From contig JAPOZO010000100.1 of assembly GCA_026706025.1 (NCBI GenBank), positions 1 through 64,000 of the forward strand: a stretch of DNA of 64,000 nucleotides, in the 5' to 3' direction. The DNA is from Candidatus Poribacteria bacterium (GTDB taxonomy: Bacteria; Poribacteria; WGA-4E; WGA-3G). A model generated the notes under the pieces. The model made no database searches, was not told the DNA's origin, and was given only the letters and a program-made list of their open reading frames with translations. The translations under genes and the position numbers were made by a program. Below are positions 34,650 to 52,455 of this stretch, one piece after another (position 1 is the stretch's first letter; every line of letters begins with the position of its first letter).

Positions 34650-35804
34650 ATGGATAAGAAAGAATTAACCAAACACTATCAAGATTTTCGGGATGCGTTG
34701 TTGGTGTGGTTTGAACGTTACCAGCGCGAGATGCCGTGGCGCAATACGGACGATCCGTACCGGATTTGGGTCTCTGAGGTGATGCTCCAGCAGACACAGG
34801 TTAAGAAGGTTATAGACTATTATGAGAAGTTCATCGCGAGATTTCCGAGTGTGCAGGATTTGGCGGCTGCGCCGCTACAAGATGTGTTGAAAGTCTGGGA
34901 AGGGTTGGGGTATTATGCGAGGGCACGGAATCTCCACAAAGCGGCACAGGTTATCGTGAACGAACTGGATGGGGAAATCCCATTGGACTATGCGACTTTT
35001 CGGAAGTTGCCGGGTGTTGGCGATTATAGTGCGGCGGCGGTGCAGAGCATCGCTTTTAACGCGCCATACGCGGCGGTGGATGGGAACATCAAACGCGTGT
35101 TGGCGCGCCTGTTTCTGATGGATGCGCCGATTAACGATGCGAAGTCGGCGAAATTGTTTCAACAAAAAGCGGATGCGCTTTTGGATCGGGACGCGCCAGG
35201 ACTTTTCAATCAGGCGATGATGGAGTTGGGGGCAATGGTCTGTCGTCCGCAGTCGCCGACGTGTCTGGTGTGTCCTGTGAATGCGTTTTGTGAGGCGTTC
35301 GACACGATGCGTCAGGAGGAGTTTCCGAAACGGCGCGAGTCGAAACCTACACCGGAACACTCTCTCGCTGTTGGGGTTATCTATAATTCGGCAGGTGAGG
35401 TACTGATTACGCAACGGCAACTTGATGGACTGCTCGGTGGACTCTGGGAGTTCCCCGGTGGTGAGATTGCTGATGGTGAAACTGCTGAGGTGGCGTGTGT
35501 TCGCAATATCGCTGAGGTTGTCAATCTCTCTGTCAGGAATGTGCGGTATCTGACGCGCGTGAGGCACGCGTTTACGCATTTTAAGATCGTGGTGGATGTG
35601 TTTCGGTGTGATTATGAGGCGGGTGAGGTCGTGTTGAATGGACCGCGGGATGCAAAGTGGGTTGCGGTTGCGGCACTGCGGGATTATCCGCTTCCGCGTG
35701 CGACGCATAAGTTTTTGGATGAGTTAATAGCCGTCGGCTGTCAGCGGTCAGCAGTCAGCAAGAACAGCCGTCAGCCGTCAGCGATCAGCAGTCAGCAAGA
35801 ATAG
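34650..35804 (+). CDS. mutY: A/G-specific adenine glycosylase MutY
   Basis: 384 residues. Removes adenine mispaired with 8-oxoguanine. The catalytic Glu is E43 in WVSEVMLQQTQV, the HhH is LPGVGDYSAAAVQSIAFN and the conserved Asp is D143 in AAVDGNIKRVL. The 4Fe-4S loop is C-x6-C-x2-C-x5-C (CRPQSPTCLVCPVNAFC). A NUDIX-like C-terminal domain (GGLWEFPGGEI) follows. The last about 25 residues (after DELIAVG) are encoded by heptamer repeats (CAGCCGT/CAGCAGT), so the tail is an extension by repeat invasion rather than a family feature. Confidence 0.96.
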   Translation: MDKKELTKHYQDFRDALLVWFERYQREMPWRNTDDPYRIWVSEVMLQQTQVKKVIDYYEKFIARFPSVQDLAAAPLQDVLKVWEGLGYYARARNLHKAAQVIVNELDGEIPLDYATFRKLPGVGDYSAAAVQSIAFNAPYAAVDGNIKRVLARLFLMDAPINDAKSAKLFQQKADALLDRDAPGLFNQAMMELGAMVCRPQSPTCLVCPVNAFCEAFDTMRQEEFPKRRESKPTPEHSLAVGVIYNSAGEVLITQRQLDGLLGGLWEFPGGEIADGETAEVACVRNIAEVVNLSVRNVRYLTRVRHAFTHFKIVVDVFRCDYEAGEVVLNGPRDAKWVAVAALRDYPLPRATHKFLDELIAVGCQRSAVSKNSRQPSAISSQQE

Positions 35805-35835
35805 TTTCCATCAGCCATCAGCAGTCAGCAAAGAG
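35729..35835. repeat. Heptamer repeat tract running out of mutY
   Basis: Degenerate 7-nt units CAGCCGT, CAGCGGT, CAGCAGT, CAGCGAT and CAGCCAT, partly separated by CAAGAATAG or CAAAGAG spacers, cross the mutY stop at 35804. Similar tracts occur in at least ten other gaps of the window. Confidence 0.75.
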
Positions 35836-41870: not shown

Positions 41871-42226
41871 GTACGACTTCTCCTTACATTAATTCTAACG
41901 TGAGATTATAAACACAAACGATTAGGACTCATGTTGCGTTTCACTCTACCGACACAATTTTGGCGTTCAATGAATGTAAGAGGGTTTTCGTTAAATGATG
42001 ATGTACTGCGTTCCGTTGAATTGCGGATTATCACAGATTTCTTGAATTTGGAGTCTCCAATATCTTCCGTTCAACAGATTGGGGAGTGGGCAGATCAATA
42101 CGGGTGAACGGCACAGTGACTGTGCCTACTACTTTTTAGGGTGAACGGCACAGAGACTGTGCCTACTACTTTTTAGGGTGAACGGCACAGTGACTGTGTC
42201 TACTACTTTTAACAAGAGGGAAGGAT
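41871..42226. other. Divergent intergenic region with tandem hairpin repeat
   Basis: The first 230 bp hold no recognised gene and probably the promoters of the Pro-rich protein and the amidase. The 37-bp tandem repeat at 42102-42210 fills the rest, ending 16 nt before the amidase ATG. Confidence 0.5.
42102..42210. repeat. 37-bp tandem repeat x3 with hairpin
   Basis: Units begin at 42102, 42139 and 42176. Each contains GGCACAGTGACTGTGCC, a palindrome (the second has GAGACTGTGCC), and ends TACTACTTTT. A related unit lies at 37885-37912. The array directly precedes the amidase ribosome site. Confidence 0.85.
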
Positions 42227-43841: not shown

Positions 43842-44873
43842 CTACTTCTGTGGTAGGCGATACCCCTCTTTTGTCGTTTGGATGCTGTAGAGGCAATGTT
43901 CTGCTGTGATGTAGAGGGTCTTGTTCGTTTTGCCGTGTCCAAATGCGACATTGGTGGGTTTATCGGGTGTCTCGACGTAAGCGAGTTCTTCACCGTCAGG
44001 TGTGTAAACGCGGACGCCGGGTCGGGTTTCATCGCGCACTGCCACCCAGAGATTGCCCTCTGCATCGACGACCATACCGTCTGGCCCGTCCTGTGGTGCG
44101 TAATCAACAAGTACTTTACGGAAAGTTGCGGTGCCTTCCGGCGAGAGATCATAAGCGAGGAGTGCCATCTGTCCTTTATGGGGTTCCATGTCATCGGGGA
44201 GGTTACTACCCATGGCGCCGTTGTCGTGACTGATGACATAGAGGGTCTTTTGGTCCGGCGAGACGGCTACACCGTTCGGTTTGCCGCCATCCGTGACAAC
44301 GAGATGAATAGACCCGTCAGGATCAATGCGATAGACCCCAAAAATGGGTTGTTCGACGGGTTCGTGTCCGGCGTACCGTGGGTCCGTGAAATAGATGCGT
44401 CCTTGCTCATCAATCGCGAGATCGTTCGGTGAGTTGAAAGGTTTTCCGTTATAGAGACCGGCGATAATCTCAGTTTTACCGGTTTCCATGTCTGTGCGGG
44501 TAATCCTACGTCCCCCGAAATCAGCCCCTTCTGCAACAACCAAGCGACCTTGTGCGTCAAACTCCATACCGTTGGACATCCCACTCGGCGAACGGAAAAC
44601 GGTTGTTTCACCGGTTTCCGGGTTGTATCTCATGATATGTCCGGCTTGCATATCGGTCTGATCTGTGAAGGTGATGTCGCTGAAATAGACTGTGCCATCT
44701 GGGGCGACGGTGGGTCCTTCTGTGAAATGTGCGTCGTTAAAGAGTTCTGTGAGTTCCGCGCCCGGTGCAATAATGGGGTCGCTGTCTGCAGCATTTCCAT
44801 TCAACGCAGGTGCTAATGCGAGACCTGCAGCAATAGTGCAAGCGAGGGTTTGTGAAACATTTAGATTCGGCAT
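43842..44873 (-). CDS. SMP-30/gluconolactonase-like exported protein
   Basis: 343 residues. An N-terminal signal peptide (hydrophobic to about residue 28, cleavage near GNA-AD) indicates export. The six-bladed beta-propeller pattern of the SGL family is clear: FTEGPTVAPDGTVYFSDI, NGMEFDAQGRLVVAEG, SPNDLAIDEQGRIYFTDPRY, NGVAVSPDQKTLYV and DGMVVDAEGNLWVAV. The divalent-metal positions (Glu, Asn, Asn, Asp) are present. Likely a periplasmic lactonase in sugar catabolism. Confidence 0.92.
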   Translation of the reverse strand: MPNLNVSQTLACTIAAGLALAPALNGNAADSDPIIAPGAELTELFNDAHFTEGPTVAPDGTVYFSDITFTDQTDMQAGHIMRYNPETGETTVFRSPSGMSNGMEFDAQGRLVVAEGADFGGRRITRTDMETGKTEIIAGLYNGKPFNSPNDLAIDEQGRIYFTDPRYAGHEPVEQPIFGVYRIDPDGSIHLVVTDGGKPNGVAVSPDQKTLYVISHDNGAMGSNLPDDMEPHKGQMALLAYDLSPEGTATFRKVLVDYAPQDGPDGMVVDAEGNLWVAVRDETRPGVRVYTPDGEELAYVETPDKPTNVAFGHGKTNKTLYITAEHCLYSIQTTKEGYRLPQK

Positions 44874-44974
44874 ATTTGATCTCCTTTGTCGTTAACTGTA
44901 AACAACTATCCCAGCGCGTGTGCCAAAAAGTATACGTTAGCTATGCCGTCTTGTCAACAGAAATTGTAAAAAAA

Positions 44975-45004
44975 TTGCATTTTAATCTAAGTCTCAAGTA
45001 TAAT
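44975..45004 (+). promoter_or_regulatory. sigma70-like promoter upstream of hicBA
   Basis: TTGCAT (44975-44980) and TATAAT (44999-45004), spacer 18 nt, about 128 nt before the HicB ATG. Confidence 0.5.
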
Positions 45005-45131
45005 ACAAATTACCCTAAGGTGTAGGGGCGGTGCCTTTTCCTACTCGTGTTCTCGGCAACGCAAATAATACGAATGAAGTCAATAGAAGAGTATTAGTCA
45101 TGATATAGTGATATGAAAGGAGAGGTCGAGG

Positions 45132-45350
45132 ATGAAATTTAACGCAGTTTTCAAAAAAGTTCCAGAGGGTTACATCGGATTTGTCGAAGAATTGCCCGGT
45201 GCGAATACACAAGGTAAAACGCTTGAAGAAACGAGGGCAAATCTCCGAGAGGCAATTGAACTGACGCTTGCGGCGAATCGCGCCCTTGCTGAAGAAGATA
45301 TCGCGGAGTTACAAGATGTCATTCGTGAACCTATTTCTGTGCGGTTATGA
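45132..45350 (+). CDS. hicB: HicB-family antitoxin
   Basis: 72 residues: KFNAVFKKVPEGYIGFVEEL and GANTQGKTLEETRANLREAI match the HicB partial RNase-H fold. AAAGGAGAGG precedes the ATG. It overlaps the HicA gene by 4 nt (ATGA). Upstream placement of hicB, the antitoxin, is one of the two known orders. It lacks a C-terminal RHH or HTH extension, so DNA binding may need another region. Confidence 0.9.
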   Translation: MKFNAVFKKVPEGYIGFVEELPGANTQGKTLEETRANLREAIELTLAANRALAEEDIAELQDVIREPISVRL

Positions 45351-45532
45351 AAAGGCGCGAGTTCGTTCGCCATCTTGAAAAGAATGGTTGTGAATTTTTT
45401 CGCGAAGGCGGCAACCATACTATTTATGTTAATCGCCAAACACGGCGTGTCGCACCTGTCCCAAGACACCGGGAATTGAACAGATTCTTAGTGCGGAAAA
45501 TTTGTAAAAATTTGGAAATTCCGTTTCCATAA
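45347..45532 (+). CDS. hicA: HicA-family mRNA interferase toxin
   Basis: 61 residues with the HicA double-stranded-RNA-binding fold: MKRREFVRHLEKNGCEFFRE, GGNHTIYVN with the catalytic His, and PVPRHRELNRFLVRKICKNL. Coupled to HicB through a 4-nt overlap. It appears intact. Confidence 0.9.
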   Translation: MKRREFVRHLEKNGCEFFREGGNHTIYVNRQTRRVAPVPRHRELNRFLVRKICKNLEIPFP

Positions 45533-45581
45533 GGCTTATATTTACTGAGTGGCGGGATCCTACCACACCTCAGGAACGGTG

Positions 45582-46598
45582 TTAACCCATTGGATGCGGT
45601 CCATGTGTTGCCACGCCTTGTCGGGCATGTGCGTAGACGGCATCCTGAATTTCAAGAATCTTTACTGCATCGGCAACTGTCGGCTCGAAGGTGTCGTCGT
45701 TGCGGATTGCGTCAAATGCTTTGCCCATTATCCCCTGAATCCTTGCGCCGTGTGAGATGTCTTCGCTGAACTGCACGCCTTCTGTTGTATGCACTTCAAT
45801 CAAGGGTTCACCGTTGCGACCATATTGCTCAAATACGGATGCCTTCGTTCCTATGAATCTAAAAAAATGATCGCCACCGCGTGTGCCGGACGGGTAGTTA
45901 TAACCGGATTCAATAATACCGGTGATCCCGCTCTCCGTGCGTAGTACGCCGATACCGCTATCCTCGACACCTCGACTGTACATGGCGTTAGACATAACCG
46001 CACCGACGACTGTAATTGGTTCGTCGCCGACGAACTGGAGGAATGTATCAATACCGTGTGCTGCCTCAACTGCCCAACATCCGCCGCCGGATATGCTCGG
46101 ATTGTTGTGCCAATAAGAGGGTGTCGGATCGTAACGGGATGGGGGACCGTTATTGAGTCTGCTGTTATATAACGTCAGTTCTCCCAAGCTGCCATCAGCG
46201 ACCATCTCTTTGACGACACTCACGATTCGGCTTGCCCGGTTCGGTAGCACAAGCGCGCTGAATACACCGTGTTTTTCGGATGCCTCAGCAGCAGGACGGA
46301 GCCTATCGGCACAATCTGCGAATGGTTTGTCTAAGAGGTAGGGGATACGTCGATCTACGCATGCCTGTACATGCTCCCCCATTTCAATGTGTTTACCAGC
46401 GACAAGCACAGCGTCCGGTTTGCTTGTGTCGAGGCACTCGGCTGCTGTCTCGAATCCGGGACATTGAAAATCGTCGATTAACTGTTGTCGAGGTTTGGGT
46501 TCGCTGTCCATAACCGCGACAATCTCGTGTTCGAGTTCTTTCGCGGTGCGTGCCATGCTGCGTCCGTGGTGGCTATAGGAAAGTACTGCTAATTTCAT
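45582..46598 (-). CDS. Gfo/Idh/MocA family oxidoreductase
   Basis: 338 residues. The Rossmann N-terminus is KLAVLSYSHHGRSMARTAKE (a GxGxxG variant), with DAVLVAGKHIEMGEHVQAC and the catalytic-region LLDKPFADCADRL (E-K-P changed to D-K-P). The C-terminal alpha/beta domain includes the AVEAAHGIDTFLQFVGDEP segment with the His-Asp pair. Probably an NAD(P)-dependent sugar or cyclitol dehydrogenase. The N-terminal glycine motif is atypical, so cofactor binding may differ. Confidence 0.85.
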   Translation of the reverse strand: MKLAVLSYSHHGRSMARTAKELEHEIVAVMDSEPKPRQQLIDDFQCPGFETAAECLDTSKPDAVLVAGKHIEMGEHVQACVDRRIPYLLDKPFADCADRLRPAAEASEKHGVFSALVLPNRASRIVSVVKEMVADGSLGELTLYNSRLNNGPPSRYDPTPSYWHNNPSISGGGCWAVEAAHGIDTFLQFVGDEPITVVGAVMSNAMYSRGVEDSGIGVLRTESGITGIIESGYNYPSGTRGGDHFFRFIGTKASVFEQYGRNGEPLIEVHTTEGVQFSEDISHGARIQGIMGKAFDAIRNDDTFEPTVADAVKILEIQDAVYAHARQGVATHGPHPMG

Positions 46599-46611
46599 TT
46601 TTTAGCTCCTT

Positions 46612-46766
46612 CAATAGTTTTCAGTACGATTTTTTCTGCGAAAAAATCTTTCGGTTTTCAGTTGTCAGTTAACAGTACTCAGTTTTCAGTTAAGAGGGCT
46701 CTTGTAACTGATAACTCTCACTGCGAGGCAAACTGTTAACTGTTACCTAATTCAACTGACAACTAT
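46612..46766. repeat. Heptamer repeat tract with GCGAAAAAATC hairpin
   Basis: CAGTTGT, CAGTTAA, CAGTACT and CAGTTTT units plus the GATTTTTTCTGCGAAAAAATC palindrome and CTCTCACTGCGAGGCAAACTG occupy the gap between the Gfo/Idh/MocA and DUF6785-like genes. Confidence 0.7.
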
Positions 46767-46768
46767 TA

Positions 46769-48694
46769 TTATCTGTAGAACGAATACATCTGTACTCCTG
46801 TAAAGAGCCGAATGAGTACCCATATACCGCCTATCATGAATTCACCGAGGATGAGTCCGAGAAAGAGCGGATAGGCTTTGCGATACAGCCGAATCCCGCC
46901 GACTTTCAGCAATATCGTTTTGATGCCCCAGCTGAGGAATATTGAGAACCAGAGTCTACCGATCGTCGATTTTTCACCGGCGACGAGGTAACCTGCTGGA
47001 TGGAAGGGCCAGAACGGGAACACTGTCCGAAGCCACCAGAGGAAGCCGGTGAAGAGTGCGCCGATACCGATGAAAGTCACGGCGGCAGCGTCGGTTTCGG
47101 TAGGGTGTGAGATCCAATTTTGGAGGAGGTTGTACCCACCTGTGCCGAGATCACTAACGACCCCGATATTGTATCCGACGAGGAGGTATGCCCAAAACGA
47201 TGCGAGGATCCCTACCACTGCCGCGAACATCATTGCGACAATGAGTCTGCCGGAACGCATGCCTGATTCCTCGGCGAGTTTGAAGCCTTCGAGTGTATGC
47301 GGCATCGGGTTTGCACGGGAACCGCGATTGAAGGTGAGGTAGAGACGCATCATCGTCAAACTACCGTGCGAAAGGATTCGGGTGCCGAAGATGTCGGTAA
47401 GGATACCGTGCGGTGTTGCATAGGTGCGAATCGTCGGCGGACCGACTTCGGCACGGATACGGGTGAGACTCATGGATAAGAGGTAGTAAATAAGGAAATA
47501 GAGACCGATTGTCCAAATTGCCATCCCACCTCGGTGTGAAAAGACGAATAGAAATATCAACCCACCCACTAATCCGAATGCTGCCCAGCGGTAGCGCATC
47601 GGTTCTCTGCTGTCGTCGATTTCACCGGGTGAGTGGTACCCCCGAAAGATATGCTTCGCAACGCGAAGAAAGAAGCGTCGTCCGCCCCAGAGCGCGAAGC
47701 AGGAGAGTACGAGGTAGCCCCCCATTATCTGTTGCCAGTCGTAAGGGAACCCCGGCATGATATCGAGTCCAAGCGCGCTGCCCAATATCCGTTCTGCTTT
47801 CCAGAACCAATAGAAGAACCAGACAGAAAATGACATCTCTAACGGCATTAGGTAGGCGAGTCCGACAGCGAATGAGCGGATATAGATAGGTGTCCAACCG
47901 ATAGAGTTCCACGGTTTTTGGGTGAAGTATTGACCGATCTCGGCGTGCCGTACTGGGATTTCGGGGAGTTCAGGGAAGAGGACATGTATACCGTTGATGA
48001 GGTTGATGCCGCCTGCAATCGCGAATCCGAGCCACATCATTTTTGACTTGAAGAGTCGTCCATCAAGCCTCGTCATCTCCAGTGGCAGCTGCACAATCGG
48101 ATAGGATAGCCGTTCACTCTCAATCCACTGTTTTCGGAGGAAAACGTCGATACAGATCATCACCCAGATAAGGACGGTCAGAAACACCGTCCACCAGAGG
48201 ATAGGACGTAGCCATCCGAGCAGATGTACCTTCCGATAAACCGTGCTTTCGCCATCGTAAAACAATTTTAGGCTTGCTTCGTTGTTAGAGGTCAGCCACG
48301 CGGGTAGGTGTCGCCAGAAAAGTTGTTTCCATTCGTTTTCGGGGGTTGCGAACCAGTAACCGTCCGAGATTGTCGGGATGACGGTTTGCATCATATCGTG
48401 CCCGGCAATTGCGGAAGAGAGCGAGAGCATGGCGAAGATCGTCAGCAGTTCACCCTGTCTGAAAGCGAACTTTGGCAGGAACCGCTTTAGCAGTAGGTTG
48501 AACGGGATGAGTACCATCAACGTGATAACCACGTTGTAGATGAGCGACATCGTGGTCGGGAGGGTACTCCAGAATTTGAGGTGGTTTGCCATGATGAAGT
48601 AGGTATTCACCGGAATCAGTAGCAAACCGAGTGCAATGGCACGAAAGGTTACGCCCGGATGGGGAGCTTGGTTTTTCAAGGTCGCGTCTGGCAT
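46769..48694 (-). CDS. DUF6785-like polytopic membrane protein
   Basis: 641 residues with about 14 membrane segments and no signal peptide beyond helix 1. It is the complete paralogue of the partial gene at 1-1644: FATPENEWKQLFWRHLPAWL, RKQWIESERLSYPIVQLP, RPWNS-like QKPWNSIGWTP, DDSREPMRYRWAA, LTRIRAEVGPP and PMPHTLEGFKLAEESGMRSG. The last blocks resemble peptide-transporter-like proteins in gene neighbourhoods of carbohydrate catabolism, but no substrate can be assigned. Confidence 0.8.
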   Translation of the reverse strand: MPDATLKNQAPHPGVTFRAIALGLLLIPVNTYFIMANHLKFWSTLPTTMSLIYNVVITLMVLIPFNLLLKRFLPKFAFRQGELLTIFAMLSLSSAIAGHDMMQTVIPTISDGYWFATPENEWKQLFWRHLPAWLTSNNEASLKLFYDGESTVYRKVHLLGWLRPILWWTVFLTVLIWVMICIDVFLRKQWIESERLSYPIVQLPLEMTRLDGRLFKSKMMWLGFAIAGGINLINGIHVLFPELPEIPVRHAEIGQYFTQKPWNSIGWTPIYIRSFAVGLAYLMPLEMSFSVWFFYWFWKAERILGSALGLDIMPGFPYDWQQIMGGYLVLSCFALWGGRRFFLRVAKHIFRGYHSPGEIDDSREPMRYRWAAFGLVGGLIFLFVFSHRGGMAIWTIGLYFLIYYLLSMSLTRIRAEVGPPTIRTYATPHGILTDIFGTRILSHGSLTMMRLYLTFNRGSRANPMPHTLEGFKLAEESGMRSGRLIVAMMFAAVVGILASFWAYLLVGYNIGVVSDLGTGGYNLLQNWISHPTETDAAAVTFIGIGALFTGFLWWLRTVFPFWPFHPAGYLVAGEKSTIGRLWFSIFLSWGIKTILLKVGGIRLYRKAYPLFLGLILGEFMIGGIWVLIRLFTGVQMYSFYR

Positions 48695-49000
48695 ATAGGG
48701 GTTGAACTTGGGGTTTATTGTGATATGTTTTATTGAACGTTGAATAGATGCTGGATTGTCCTACTATGAACTTAATTTCCTAAGGGTTATGATTTTAATT
48801 TTCCCACAGCAAAGTGTCTATTTTGACGCGGATAACACCTAAAACACTTTTTTAAAGTCTTATGATATACATTATATCCGCCATCATTCAGATCGTAGGA
48901 AGCGCAATAATGCACGTCGCATTTGGGCGAGTACGCCGCAGAATTGCGCCACTACGAACCAGGTTTCCGTTCATGAGAAACGGTTATTCAGAAATAGTGT
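48695..49000. other. Intergenic region, no gene seen
   Basis: About 300 bp that includes the presumed promoter of the DUF6785-like gene and a fragment of the CGCATTTGGGCGAGTACGCC segment (about 48922), which also occurs at 56125 and 58928 inside other repeats. Confidence 0.45.
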
Positions 49001-49069
49001 TTATTTGAAAATAGCGACGATAATCGAGATGATAATAGCACCAACGGCACACGCGGTCGTTATCCAGTT
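49001..49069 (-). other. In-frame membrane-helix tail after a TGA stop
   Basis: Immediately after the TGA of the coiled-coil gene the same frame continues as NWITTACAVGAIIISIIVAI plus FK and then TAA at 49001-49003. The 22 residues form a typical membrane helix. With TGA read as Trp the junction would be ISGM-W-NWITT. This is either a nonsense mutation (TGG to TGA) or a readthrough-controlled tail. Confidence 0.55.
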
Positions 49070-49279
49070 TCACATTCCCGAAATTGCTTGTTGCTTACCC
49101 GTGAGTTCCGATATACCATTCTCAACGGTGCGGAGTCGGGTATCCACTCCATCTAACCGAGTATCCACCCTATCTAAACGCTGATTGATTTCATTAAAAC
49201 GCTGGTTAACTTGATCAAAGTTTACTCTGACCTGATCAAAGCCGTCTTTCATCACCTGATAGAGTTCTTCATTTGTCAT
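49070..49279 (-). CDS. Small coiled-coil protein (likely truncated tail-anchored protein)
   Basis: 69 residues, nearly all coiled coil, with repeated heptads such as FDQVNQRFNEINQRLDRVDT and RLDGVDTRLRTVENGISELT. Proteins of this style usually end in one membrane helix; here that helix is encoded in frame behind the TGA stop. The ATG is preceded by AGGAGAACAGAAGAA. Function unknown; could oligomerise or anchor a partner. Confidence 0.72.
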   Translation of the reverse strand: MTNEELYQVMKDGFDQVRVNFDQVNQRFNEINQRLDRVDTRLDGVDTRLRTVENGISELTGKQQAISGM

Positions 49280-49326
49280 TTCTTCTGTTCTCCTTTGGCT
49301 TTTTGATAAAAATTATACCACATCTC

Positions 49327-51054
49327 CTATTTTGCGTCACCTTCTTTTTTCAATTTCCTTCTCGCTTGCCAGTAGGCGAACTGACGGAGATAGTAGTTGA
49401 GGTTTTTGTGGATTTTCTCGAACTCTGGCACGAATGGACACCTTCCGCCGAGGACGATTAGTTCCACCTTGGCACGCGTCATCGCAACATAGAAGACACG
49501 ACGTTCCTCTGTGAGTTCACTATCAGGACGCGGGAAACGTCGCTCAAGTGTGTTATGAATGAGGATAACCTTTTCCCACTCCCGTCCTTTTGATTTGTGA
49601 ATTGTTGTTATTTCAGGGGCTGCTGGGTTATTGGCAAGCATCGCTTGAATCTGATCGGTTTCGTAGTTGGTGCGTGCTAAAACGGCGGTTTCTTGTGATG
49701 ATCCTAACTCGCGTCGTAAAGCAGCTGCGATGGTTTCAGGGGTTGTCTCTACGGTTTTTATGTGCTGTCGCATCGGGTTGTGGGCGCGGAGGTTTTTTCG
49801 GATTCGGGGTGCGTTGCGTTTAATCAACGCTCTGGCGTGTTCAACAATGGTGGATGTAGAACGATAATTGCGCGTGATTTCATATTTTGTTACGTTTCGT
49901 TGGTTGGTGAATGCCAGCATGATTTCTGAGTTACCGCCGCGAAAGCCGTAAATCGCCTGATCGTCGTCACCGACAGCGAAGATGTTCTCAGAAAGACGTG
50001 AAATCAGTTGGAAGTCGGCGGGTGCAATATCTTGAAACTCGTCGACAAGGACGTATGGGTATTTGTCGCGATAGGTTTGGCGGAGGTCGGGACAGGTCTC
50101 AAGTAGGTTCGCGGCGTGGATAATCATGTCCTCGAAATCGACAGCGTTTGCTTCGGTTTTGAGGCATTCATATTTTATTGCAAATGCTCGCGCCACAGGG
50201 TCGTCAAATGTGGTTGGGTCGAACAGCCCTGTGATGACTTGACGTTTCGCACGCATGACTGTCTCTTTTATGTCGTCGAAACGGTCGCGGAGATTCTCGA
50301 AATCGGGGTGTGTGTCGAAATTTTCTTCGTAAGGGATACCGAAATGCTGGCAGAACATCTCAAGGATGAGTTGATTGCTGTACTGCCTCCGTAGCGGATC
50401 TGCGCGGTTGAACACGCTTGCGCGGTCTCTGTAGTACGCAATCCAGTGTGCTTCACGACGGTTCGCTTCTCGTCCTTTGACCCGTTCTATCACTTTGAAA
50501 CTGAATTGTGTCTCGCCTTCATGTCGGATGGCTTGTCGGAGTCTGTCGTTTGATGAATGGTTGAAGTGTTCTTTTTCACGTCGTTCTGGGTTCGTGGTCT
50601 GTCCGATGTAGCACTTACCGGTCTCTTTGTGCTCGATTTTATAGATGGCGACCTCGGTTGTGGTGGCTTCGCGTTCAATCTGTCGCCGTTCTTCTGCAAT
50701 GATTTGGTCAATCTCTCCCGACCAGATTTCGGGGATATGGCTAAATTCTGCGCGTTTATAGTTTTCGGTGATAATGTCTTTGCCGAAGGCGTGGAGTGTA
50801 CGGATAACAGGTTTTTGGGAGGTTTCAGTTTCGGATGCCGTGAGTTCCCGCGAGATTCGGGTTTCCATCTCTTCAACGGCTTTTCTGTTAAAGGCGATGG
50901 CGAGGATCTGTGAAGGTGGGATGTTATGTGTCTGGATGAGGTTCAGGATTCGTGCGGTTACGACTGTGGTTTTGCCGCTGCCGGGTCCTGCGATGACGAT
51001 TGCGGGGCCTGTGACGTGGTTAACGGCTTTTTCTTGGTTTCTATCGAGTTTCAT
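49327..51054 (-). CDS. SF1 (UvrD/Rep-like) helicase with inserted GIY-YIG nuclease domain
   Basis: 575 residues. Helicase motifs: I GPGSGKTT (23-30), Ib TLHAFGK (86-92), II VLVDEFQD, III GDDDQAIYGFRGG, IV YEITRNYRS, V TTIHKSKGREW, VI RRVFYVAMTRAK. Between motifs Ib and II, at about 134-220, lies a GIY-YIG domain: AIYKI (136-140), CYIG (148-151), Arg 158/159, Glu 201 in RREAHWIAYY and Asn 216 in VFNRADP, so all catalytic positions are present. It replaces part of the 1B subdomain, and the 2B subdomain is almost absent (about 15 residues between IV-linked segments and motif V). Likely a nuclease-helicase acting on branched or damaged DNA, perhaps defensive. Confidence 0.9.
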   Translation of the reverse strand: MKLDRNQEKAVNHVTGPAIVIAGPGSGKTTVVTARILNLIQTHNIPPSQILAIAFNRKAVEEMETRISRELTASETETSQKPVIRTLHAFGKDIITENYKRAEFSHIPEIWSGEIDQIIAEERRQIEREATTTEVAIYKIEHKETGKCYIGQTTNPERREKEHFNHSSNDRLRQAIRHEGETQFSFKVIERVKGREANRREAHWIAYYRDRASVFNRADPLRRQYSNQLILEMFCQHFGIPYEENFDTHPDFENLRDRFDDIKETVMRAKRQVITGLFDPTTFDDPVARAFAIKYECLKTEANAVDFEDMIIHAANLLETCPDLRQTYRDKYPYVLVDEFQDIAPADFQLISRLSENIFAVGDDDQAIYGFRGGNSEIMLAFTNQRNVTKYEITRNYRSTSTIVEHARALIKRNAPRIRKNLRAHNPMRQHIKTVETTPETIAAALRRELGSSQETAVLARTNYETDQIQAMLANNPAAPEITTIHKSKGREWEKVILIHNTLERRFPRPDSELTEERRVFYVAMTRAKVELIVLGGRCPFVPEFEKIHKNLNYYLRQFAYWQARRKLKKEGDAK

Positions 51055-51078
51055 ATTTGGGTAGGTTAATTAAGTGCG

Positions 51079-51105
51079 AAAACCTCCAAAACTATCGGAG
51101 GTTTT
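51079..51105 (-). terminator. Hairpin terminator-like structure
   Basis: AAAACCTCC (51079-51087) pairs with GGAGGTTTT (51097-51105) around a 9-nt loop, 60 nt beyond the stop of the gene at 51167. The stem ends in TTTT on both strands, so it may work in both directions. Confidence 0.5.
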
Positions 51106-51166
51106 CATGCCTCAACACTATTTGATTGATAGTAGTGTCTCTGAAACTTTCACAAAACCCTCTCGC

Positions 51167-51685
51167 TTATGACAAAAGCCGCTTCCCCAATGTTTCGAGA
51201 TTTCGTATTTGGAGTTCTTGCTCTTCAGCAAGGAGTGCATCCATTTCTTGCGTCTCTTCCGATTCTAACATTTTTTCACCGTTTAATGCCAAGAGTTCTG
51301 CTAAACGTTCTTGTTTTTCTACGGGTAGAGGTTCAAATCCGAAACTAACATGTCCCGTCCTAATCATTTCAGCCACGTCCATCTTTGTACTTAAAACTTC
51401 TCCAGTCCCAGCATTAACACGTATTTCTCCAACTTCAACAGGAGGGTCAACATTGGTAAAAATAGGAACTATCCATAAAGGTGGCGTTGATTCTTTAAGA
51501 ATAGGTTCTTTTGCCATCAAGCATCTACCCGCGCGCTTTCGTAAAAAAGTTAGAGCGGTGTCTCTTACTTCGTCGCGTTCGAGTTGAAACAACACAAAAT
51601 CTTCAAGTGAAATTTTAGATACTTTTGCTTGTTGCGTCAGTTTTTCATATAGATAGTCTGGTAAAGAAATTGTCAGTGGACGCAT
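51167..51685 (-). CDS. RHH-like N-terminal protein of unknown function
   Basis: 172 residues, GGAG 8 nt before the ATG. The start RPLTISLPDYLYEKLTQQAK with SLEDFVLFQLERDE resembles a ribbon-helix-helix or CopG-type N-terminus. The middle has GEIRVNAGTGEVLSTKMDVAEMIRTG, a small beta-hairpin module. The C-terminus is helical with many Glu (EKMLESEETQEMDALLAEEQ). It may be an antitoxin-like regulator; no toxin gene is adjacent. Confidence 0.65.
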   Translation of the reverse strand: MRPLTISLPDYLYEKLTQQAKVSKISLEDFVLFQLERDEVRDTALTFLRKRAGRCLMAKEPILKESTPPLWIVPIFTNVDPPVEVGEIRVNAGTGEVLSTKMDVAEMIRTGHVSFGFEPLPVEKQERLAELLALNGEKMLESEETQEMDALLAEEQELQIRNLETLGKRLLS

Positions 51686-51723
51686 ATTGAATTCTCCAGC
51701 AATAGTTGTGAGCTCGTCTATCT

Positions 51724-51913
51724 TAACGCAAGTTGCTACCTATTTATAGACATAGCACCCCTACGGGGTGCGGTACCTTAGATACACCGTTTCTATAGAC
51801 ATAGCACCCCTACGGGGTGAAGAAAATACTTGAAAAGTGTTGTTGAAATACGCAGAAATACGCAGAAATACCCAAGCAAAAACACCAAAATCTGTTAGTA
51901 GCAACTTGGGTTA
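51724..51913. repeat. Family A inverted-repeat element, copy 3 (best preserved)
   Basis: 190 bp with terminal inverted repeats TAACGCAAGTTGCTAC and GTAGCAACTTGGGTTA (one mismatch). Hairpins CACCCC-TAC-GGGGTG at 51756-51770 and 51804-51818, 48 nt apart, each preceded by ATAGACATAG. GAAATACGCAGAAATACCCA is partly tandem before the AAGCAAAAACACC module. Confidence 0.88.
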
Positions 51914-52023
51914 TCCTACATGAAGTTTACCACACCTGTGCCAATTTTTCAACCAGTATTCAGTCAAAGAATGTTTGACATACATCAAAGCTCTCCTACC
52001 AACAGCTGAAAACTATTCCTAAT

Positions 52024-52455
52024 TCATTTCGGGATGCGCCGGACCCATAATAGCAATGCCACGTTCATCGCGCCGATGAAGCCGAAGACGTAGGATTGGA
52101 TGCCTACCAACGTGTCGAGTGAGCGGATGAGGAACGGACAGAAAATCGGCAATCCGAGTGCAACGCATGTGTAAAAGGTTAGGAGTTTCGCCCCTTTTGC
52201 TTCCCAGAAGGTTATCTGCCGCTTTAAAACCTTTAAATACGATTGCTGCCACAGGCGAGAGTTCCACTTCCCCTGCATAAACCCCAGGGCGATTCCTAAA
52301 CCGAAGCCGAAACTTGACCAACGGAGGTCAATACGAACGTCTTGCGAAATGACGGCAACCCAGAGGAGCTGCCCCAGTACCGAAAGCACGATAAATGCCC
52401 AAAAGATGGGCAATTTCATATAGAATGGAAGGAGACGCCGCGACAATTTATCCAT
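52024..52455 (-). CDS. Small membrane protein of unknown function
   Basis: 143 residues with about three to four membrane helices (WAFIVLSVLGQLLWVAVI; FGLGIALGFMQ; LLTFYTCVALGLPIFCPFLI; YVFGFIGAMNVALLLWV) and basic ends. It is not coupled to a neighbouring gene; the PurQ gene lies 240 bp upstream across a family B repeat. Family unrecognised. Confidence 0.65.
   Translation of the reverse strand: MDKLSRRLLPFYMKLPIFWAFIVLSVLGQLLWVAVISQDVRIDLRWSSFGFGLGIALGFMQGKWNSRLWQQSYLKVLKRQITFWEAKGAKLLTFYTCVALGLPIFCPFLIRSLDTLVGIQSYVFGFIGAMNVALLLWVRRIPK

What the first reader, a model, noticed from the sequence alone, without database searches (positions are those of the whole stretch)
49327..51054. UvrD-type helicase with a GIY-YIG nuclease domain built into subdomain 1B
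Motifs I-VI of an SF1 helicase are intact, and a full GIY-YIG domain (residues about 134-220, with Tyr138, Tyr149, Arg158, Glu201, Asn216) interrupts the chain between motifs Ib and II. The 2B subdomain is nearly missing. I know of no described protein with this internal arrangement; it would couple unwinding to structure-specific cutting.
Basis: partly seen in the sequence, partly recalled or inferred. Interest (0 to 1): 0.82.

Follow-up and report, generated by a model that had tools for sequence, protein, structure and literature searches.

The report
Helicase with nuclease in its arm
In one family of mostly sponge-associated bacteria (Candidatus Poribacteria), a DNA-unwinding motor protein carries a DNA-cutting domain spliced into the arm that in related helicases touches the fork, an undescribed arrangement that would let one protein both open and cut branched DNA.

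Summary
Window 49327-51054 (minus strand) encodes a 575-aa SF1A (UvrD/PcrA-type) helicase with all motifs. A complete GIY-YIG nuclease domain (residues about 134-222) is inserted in subdomain 1B. It sits in the loop of the 1B helix-loop-helix, a few residues before the position of D. radiodurans UvrD Arg142, which touches the ss/ds junction. Subdomain 2B is gone (about 8 residues remain). The inserted domain is I-TevI-like (Z 12.8) and has all six catalytic residues. The catalytic Arg is 159, not 158. The protein is conserved in 54 of 59 genomes of one Candidatus Poribacteria family, often behind purL-purQ, under purifying selection (dN/dS 0.12 in the nuclease). It was found nowhere else in GTDB species genomes, viral contigs, phages, plasmids, NCBIfam, PADLOC, PHROGs or the papers searched. 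Twelve genomes carry a tandem paralogue; in most, 1B holds two GIY-YIG copies, the second having lost its catalytic Arg and Glu, and several have GrpE and S1 domains fused behind. Best reading: a deregulated (2B-less) 3'-5' translocase that delivers a junction-proximal nick, a chromosomal housekeeping nuclease-helicase. Architecture is near certain; activity and substrate are inferred.

The parts
49327..51054 (-). gene for the 575-aa helicase with inserted GIY-YIG domain (stop codon 49327-49329)
50716..51054 (-). residues 1-113: subdomain 1A first part (Q7, Walker A GPGSGKTT 23-30, Ia, TLHAFG 86-91) and entry into 1B
   Evidence: motif residues invariant
50659..50715 (-). residues 114-132: first helix of the 1B helix-loop-helix
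   Evidence: DSSP of AF2 model; alignment to own-genome PcrA and to PDB PcrA/drUvrD
50389..50655 (-). residues 134-222: inserted GIY-YIG nuclease domain; Y138, Y149, R159, H163, E201, N216
50152..50382 (-). residues 225-301: rest of 1B, starting with the second helix of the helix-loop-helix; Q228 lies at the position of drUvrD Arg142
   Evidence: position by alignment, inferred
49900..50151 (-). residues 302-385: 1A second part with motif II VDEFQDI (337-343) and motif III GDDDQAIYGFRGG
49435..49899 (-). residues 386-540: subdomain 2A with motifs IV, V (TIHKSKG), VI (VAMTRAK)
49615..49638 (-). residues 473-480: short linker where about 180 residues of 2B sit in PcrA
   Evidence: (query 476 to PcrA 374, query 479 to PcrA 558)
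52024..52455 (-). context: conserved upstream 143-aa ORF, no Pfam match; purL-purQ-ORF143-helicase order in 32 of 47 loci
52698..55938 (-). context: purQ (52698-53489) and purL (53530-55938), conserved neighbours
   Evidence: names assigned by reading the sequence; synteny

Best explanation
It is a chromosomally fixed, vertically inherited SF1A helicase-nuclease. The UvrD-type motor (1A/2A) moves 3'-5' on single-stranded DNA. A phage/I-TevI-type GIY-YIG catalytic domain sits in the loop of the 1B helix-loop-helix, the element that in D. radiodurans UvrD touches the ss/ds junction. Loss of 2B removes both the usual regulatory domain and the GIG-motif duplex grip, so the nuclease domain probably serves as the duplex contact. 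The motor loads on an ssDNA gap or fork arm, runs to the junction, and the nuclease nicks the duplex at or just ahead of it, releasing flaps or resolving stalled branches. Shown here: architecture, catalytic-residue conservation, purifying selection, fixed locus, lineage restriction. Inferred: translocation polarity, nuclease activity, junction placement on DNA, substrate, role in DNA repair or fork processing.
For: Domains. I-TevI fold and residue correspondence: R159 = I-TevI R27, E201 = E75, N216 = Asn of the terminal motif. All six nuclease residues and all helicase-motif residues checked are invariant in 45-47 homologues. dN/dS 0.12 in the nuclease against 0.06 in the motor and 0.13 in the rest of 1B. 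Helicase part superposes on drUvrD/PcrA/Rep at Z 26-29. Insertion between PcrA K138 and F139 and drUvrD E138 and T139, three to four residues before Arg142; Arg142 of the alpha5-alpha6 HLH contacts the unpaired nucleotide at the ss/ds junction (PMC3797037). 2B is a regulatory subdomain of UvrD-type helicases (PMC13238157). Present in 54 of 59 genomes of the family, mostly in constant synteny with purL-purQ.
Against: No biochemical data. GIY-YIG domains usually rely on extra DNA-binding modules (NUMODs, RING, UvrB-binding) that are absent here. The gene is missing from one complete same-genus chromosome (G021), so it is not essential there. The full-length AF2 model is weak in 2A (residues 365-374 and 395-429 under pLDDT 50), so the orientation of the nuclease relative to the motor is not established. 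The 1B alignment that places the insertion is a low-similarity region.
Confidence: 0.55

Rival explanations
1. Domesticated or still selfish homing endonuclease: the GIY-YIG domain is a mobile-element relic tolerated in the 1B loop of a helicase and contributes nothing to helicase function.
For: Closest relatives of the domain are phage homing endonucleases. GIY-YIG is known to invade unrelated genes, such as an HsdR subunit, without clear function (PMC1564403).
Against: No Hint/intein domain, no Rfam match in 44000-56000, no NUMOD-type DNA-binding domain, no insert-less orthologue in the family, catalytic residues invariant in all homologues, dN/dS 0.12, fixed locus.
Confidence: 0.12
2. Anti-phage defence effector of the Gabija/UvrD-nuclease kind.
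For: Best PADLOC matches are GajB helicases (E 1.4e-64), and helicase-nuclease combinations are common in defence (PMC10952713).
Against: The match is to the UvrD core only; no GajA-type partner among the flanking genes examined; stable vertical inheritance next to purL-purQ, unlike defence islands; no relative in plasmids or phages.
Confidence: 0.15
3. Excision-repair shortcut: the GIY-YIG nick and the UvrD removal of the cut oligomer, steps done by UvrC and UvrD in nucleotide excision repair, are joined in one chain.
For: Combination of a GIY-YIG nuclease and a UvrD motor matches the two activities (inference from known pathway; domains).
Against: Nuclease is I-TevI-like rather than UvrC-like (Z 12.8 against 6.7). 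A normal UvrC (PF08459) and a PcrA-type helicase are present in the same genome. No UvrB-binding or damage-recognition domain.
Confidence: 0.1
4. RNA-linked function (R-loop or transcript-associated processing), as the S1 and Hfq-like domains of the tandem paralogue hint.
For: Tandem paralogues carry S1 repeats, GrpE and once an Hfq-like stretch.
Against: The window protein has none of these domains; its motor and nuclease families act mainly on DNA.
Confidence: 0.08

Closest known systems
UvrD/PcrA/Rep SF1A helicases
   Same: 1A/2A core, all motifs, fold match Z 26-29
   Different: GIY-YIG inserted in the 1B helix-loop-helix; 2B absent
I-TevI-type GIY-YIG homing endonucleases
   Same: fold (Z 12.8), all catalytic residues, nearest sequence families
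   Different: no NUMOD DNA-binding tail, not in an intron or free-standing; embedded in a motor protein
AddA/RecB and AdnAB helicase-nucleases
   Same: UvrD-type motor and nuclease in one chain
   Different: their nuclease is a C-terminal PD-(D/E)xK-type domain (own knowledge); here it is a GIY-YIG domain inside 1B
Gabija GajB
   Same: UvrD-like core is the best PADLOC match
   Different: GajB has no nuclease domain and works with GajA (PMC10681800); no GajA among the flanking genes examined here
Tlr8p of Tetrahymena
   Same: GIY-YIG and a putative SF1 helicase in one protein (PMC1564403)
   Different: there the GIY-YIG is C-terminal, after the helicase, in a mobile element
HsdR of Methylococcus capsulatus (MCA0838)
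   Same: GIY-YIG inserted inside a motor-containing protein (PMC1564403)
   Different: type I restriction subunit, Slx1-like domain, single recent insertion absent from a close homologue

Membership tests
SF1A UvrD-type helicase | motifs Q, I, Ia, Ib, II-VI in a 1A/2A core | tested here: met
   fold Z 26-29
SF1A UvrD-type helicase | subdomain 2B with GIG motif (typical of UvrD/PcrA/Rep, variable in other SF1A) | tested here: not met
   about 8 residues where PcrA has about 180; hence UvrD-like SF1A, not a UvrD/PcrA/Rep orthologue
SF1A UvrD-type helicase | 3'-5' DNA unwinding | not testable with these tools
   needs biochemistry
GIY-YIG nuclease superfamily | fold | tested here: met
   I-TevI Z 12.8, rmsd 1.9, 85 residues; UvrC N-domain Z 6.7
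GIY-YIG nuclease superfamily | catalytic Tyr, Tyr, Arg, Glu, Asn | tested here: met
   Y138, Y149, R159, E201, N216 invariant
GIY-YIG nuclease superfamily | metal-dependent phosphodiester cleavage | not testable with these tools
   needs biochemistry
GIY-YIG homing endonuclease | C-terminal NUMOD/HTH DNA-binding modules | tested here: not met
   no such Pfam match
Intein | Hint splicing domain flanking the endonuclease | tested here: not met
   no Hint/intein match in Pfam or NCBIfam
Gabija GajB | adjacent gajA (OLD/TOPRIM ATPase-nuclease) | tested here: not met
   flanks are purL, purQ, ORF143 and DUF6785/Gfo-Idh genes
UvrC/Cho | UvrB-binding or Cho C-terminal domain | tested here: not met
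   UvrC is a separate gene

The most novel reading that the evidence does not exclude
A new enzyme class, confined to one bacterial family, in which subdomain 1B of a 2B-less SF1A motor was rebuilt around a nuclease that cuts at the fork junction during translocation. It diversified into tandem forms pairing an intact and an Arg/Glu-less GIY-YIG copy with GrpE and S1 modules, that is, a composite machine joining fork cutting with RNA binding or chaperone recruitment.
Probability: 0.25. Interest if true: 0.82.

Novelty: new variant of a known kind. Interest (0 to 1): 0.62.

Why it matters
Known helicase-nucleases attach the nuclease at an end or in a partner subunit. Here it sits in the arm that in a related enzyme touches the fork junction, and the regulatory 2B subdomain is gone, so motor stepping and cutting could be directly coupled. 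The 575-aa size makes it a compact, testable system for how a translocase positions a cut, and a natural 2B-less SF1A helicase. The GIY-YIG survey read here (2006) recorded only a C-terminal fusion to an SF1 helicase and one recent insertion into HsdR.

Tried and rejected
Intein or group I intron: no Hint match, no Rfam match, continuous frame in the homologues. Assembly chimera: excluded by homologues on single-contig chromosomes. Phage or plasmid origin of the whole gene: no record covers 80% of the query; hits are UvrD, PcrA, HelD or phage helicases; viral GIY-YIG hits inspected are in ORFs separate from any helicase. TAL-effector hits in PDB cover only residues 18-95 and mostly pass on no single stretch; taken as repeat artefacts. 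Searches of other phyla with the 1B+GIY profile gave nothing but one helicase-only hit; those samples are small for most phyla and, as the tool states, an empty answer without a positive control shows little. The GTDB-wide scan used two exact peptide patterns and could miss diverged members. Papers on GIY-YIG with UvrD or with inserted domains and helicases gave no description. Full-model search of viral predicted structures returned helicases and other NTPase proteins only.

Full report
What is there. The minus-strand ORF 49327-51054 encodes 575 aa. Pfam gives UvrD-helicase (4-385, E 7.9e-60), UvrD_C (E 9.4e-22) and, inside the first, GIY-YIG (136-210, E 5.1e-9, above its gathering score). 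NCBIfam gives PcrA/Rep/UvrD models far under their equivalog cut-offs and the group I intron endonuclease model over 136-216. The GIY-YIG segment alone matches phage homing-endonuclease families at 8e-17 and 2e-16.

Where the insertion sits. Aligned with the genome's own PcrA and a second insert-less UvrD-type protein, residues 133-224 have no counterpart. The own PcrA aligns along its length to PDB PcrA and to D. radiodurans UvrD. Through it the insertion falls between PcrA K138 and F139 and between drUvrD E138 and T139. [quoted passage not shown] the aligned residue here is Gln228, invariant or nearly so. The AF2 model agrees: helix 114-132, GIY-YIG 134-212 mostly at pLDDT about 86-97, then helix 227-238. 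Its helicase part aligns to drUvrD, PcrA, Rep and UvrD at Z 26-29. The whole model has mean pLDDT 78.9 and parts of 2A under 50, so relative domain orientation is not relied on. 2B is absent: query 476 aligns to PcrA 374 and query 479 to PcrA 558.

The nuclease domain. Folded alone it matches I-TevI at Z 12.8 (rmsd 1.9, 85 residues), well above UvrC (6.7) and Slx1 (5.4). Sequence alignment to the two solved I-TevI chains, which carry Ala at R27 (1ln0) and at E75 (1mk0), puts R27 on R159, E75 on E201 and the terminal Asn on N216; the R27 naming rests on my knowledge of I-TevI and the aligned letters, E75A is in the entry title. H163, four residues on, is also invariant. All six positions are invariant in 46-47 homologues.

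Distribution and history. In the phylum search 54 of 59 genomes of the window's family match across the 1B+GIY profile; three further matches in another family of the order are GIY-YIG-only. The GTDB-species scan returned 47 Candidatus Poribacteria loci and two unrelated partial hits. In 32 of the 47 loci the gene follows purL-purQ-ORF143 or the part of it that the contig holds. The same purL-purQ-ORF143 block without the helicase occurs in genomes of two other families of the order and in G021, a single-contig same-genus genome that lacks the gene. So the gene was fixed at this site early in the family and can be lost. Median dN/dS is 0.064 in the motor core, 0.121 in the GIY-YIG domain and 0.129 in the rest of 1B: the nuclease is under purifying selection like its surroundings. 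Phage and plasmid collections hold no protein covering 80% of the query.

Paralogues. Twelve genomes have a second, usually adjacent copy. Two of the ten long ones examined have one GIY-YIG domain; eight have two in 1B. A further two-copy case (L032) is cut by a contig end, as is a partial one (L018). In all nine second copies the catalytic Arg and Glu are lost, while first copies keep Tyr, Tyr, Arg, His and Glu in 11 of 11 and Asn in 8 of 11. Several have GrpE and S1 repeats C-terminally, one an Hfq-like stretch. A normal separate GrpE gene exists. On the core tree the family and its paralogues group apart from the two own-genome UvrD proteins; several inner supports are weak (0.53-0.79).

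Mechanism. SF1A motors move 3'-5' on ssDNA, and 2B regulates and often inhibits monomers (established knowledge; PMC13238157). A motor without 2B and with a nuclease in the junction-contacting loop of 1B is best read as a translocase that delivers a nick at the ss/ds junction. Cleavage, polarity, strand and substrate remain untested. Stable inheritance beside purine genes and presence in nearly all family members favour a housekeeping DNA-processing role over defence, although the best PADLOC match is GajB through the common helicase core. A complete UvrC is also encoded, so it is not a replacement for it.

Known or new. The 2006 GIY-YIG survey lists a C-terminal fusion to a putative SF1 helicase (Tlr8p) and one insertion in HsdR, not this arrangement. 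No paper found describes it. Both domains are known families; their 1B nesting with 2B loss is a new variant.

Noticed in passing
L041:611-5704(-), L046:1044-4931(-), L044:7094-11386(+), L043:5045-9076(+), L047:5738-9196(+): Tandem paralogues with two GIY-YIG copies in 1B (second lacking catalytic Arg and Glu) fused to a GrpE domain and, in most, S1 repeats; L047 also has an Hfq-like stretch (E 6.6e-5).
   Followed up: partly
L040:1930-5670(-), L039:6394-8820(+): Paralogues with a single GIY-YIG copy and long C-terminal extensions (S1 repeats in L040).
   Followed up: partly
L043, L044, L045 first GIY-YIG copies: The terminal catalytic Asn is replaced (I, K, D), suggesting decay or changed activity in these paralogues.
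   Followed up: partly
window 51167-51685 and 52024-52455: Two conserved neighbouring ORFs (172 and 143 aa) without any Pfam match; the 143-aa one is syntenic with purL-purQ in other families of the order too.
   Followed up: partly
window 35729-35830, 42102-42210, 61615-61720: Three separate short tandem arrays all with a 37-bp period; the unit at 42102 contains a dyad with 8-bp arms, GGCACAGTGACTGTGCC.
   Followed up: no
G045:C1:4553187-4553669 and G029:C239:36345-36605: Additional diverged GrpE-like ORFs besides the normal grpE.
   Followed up: no
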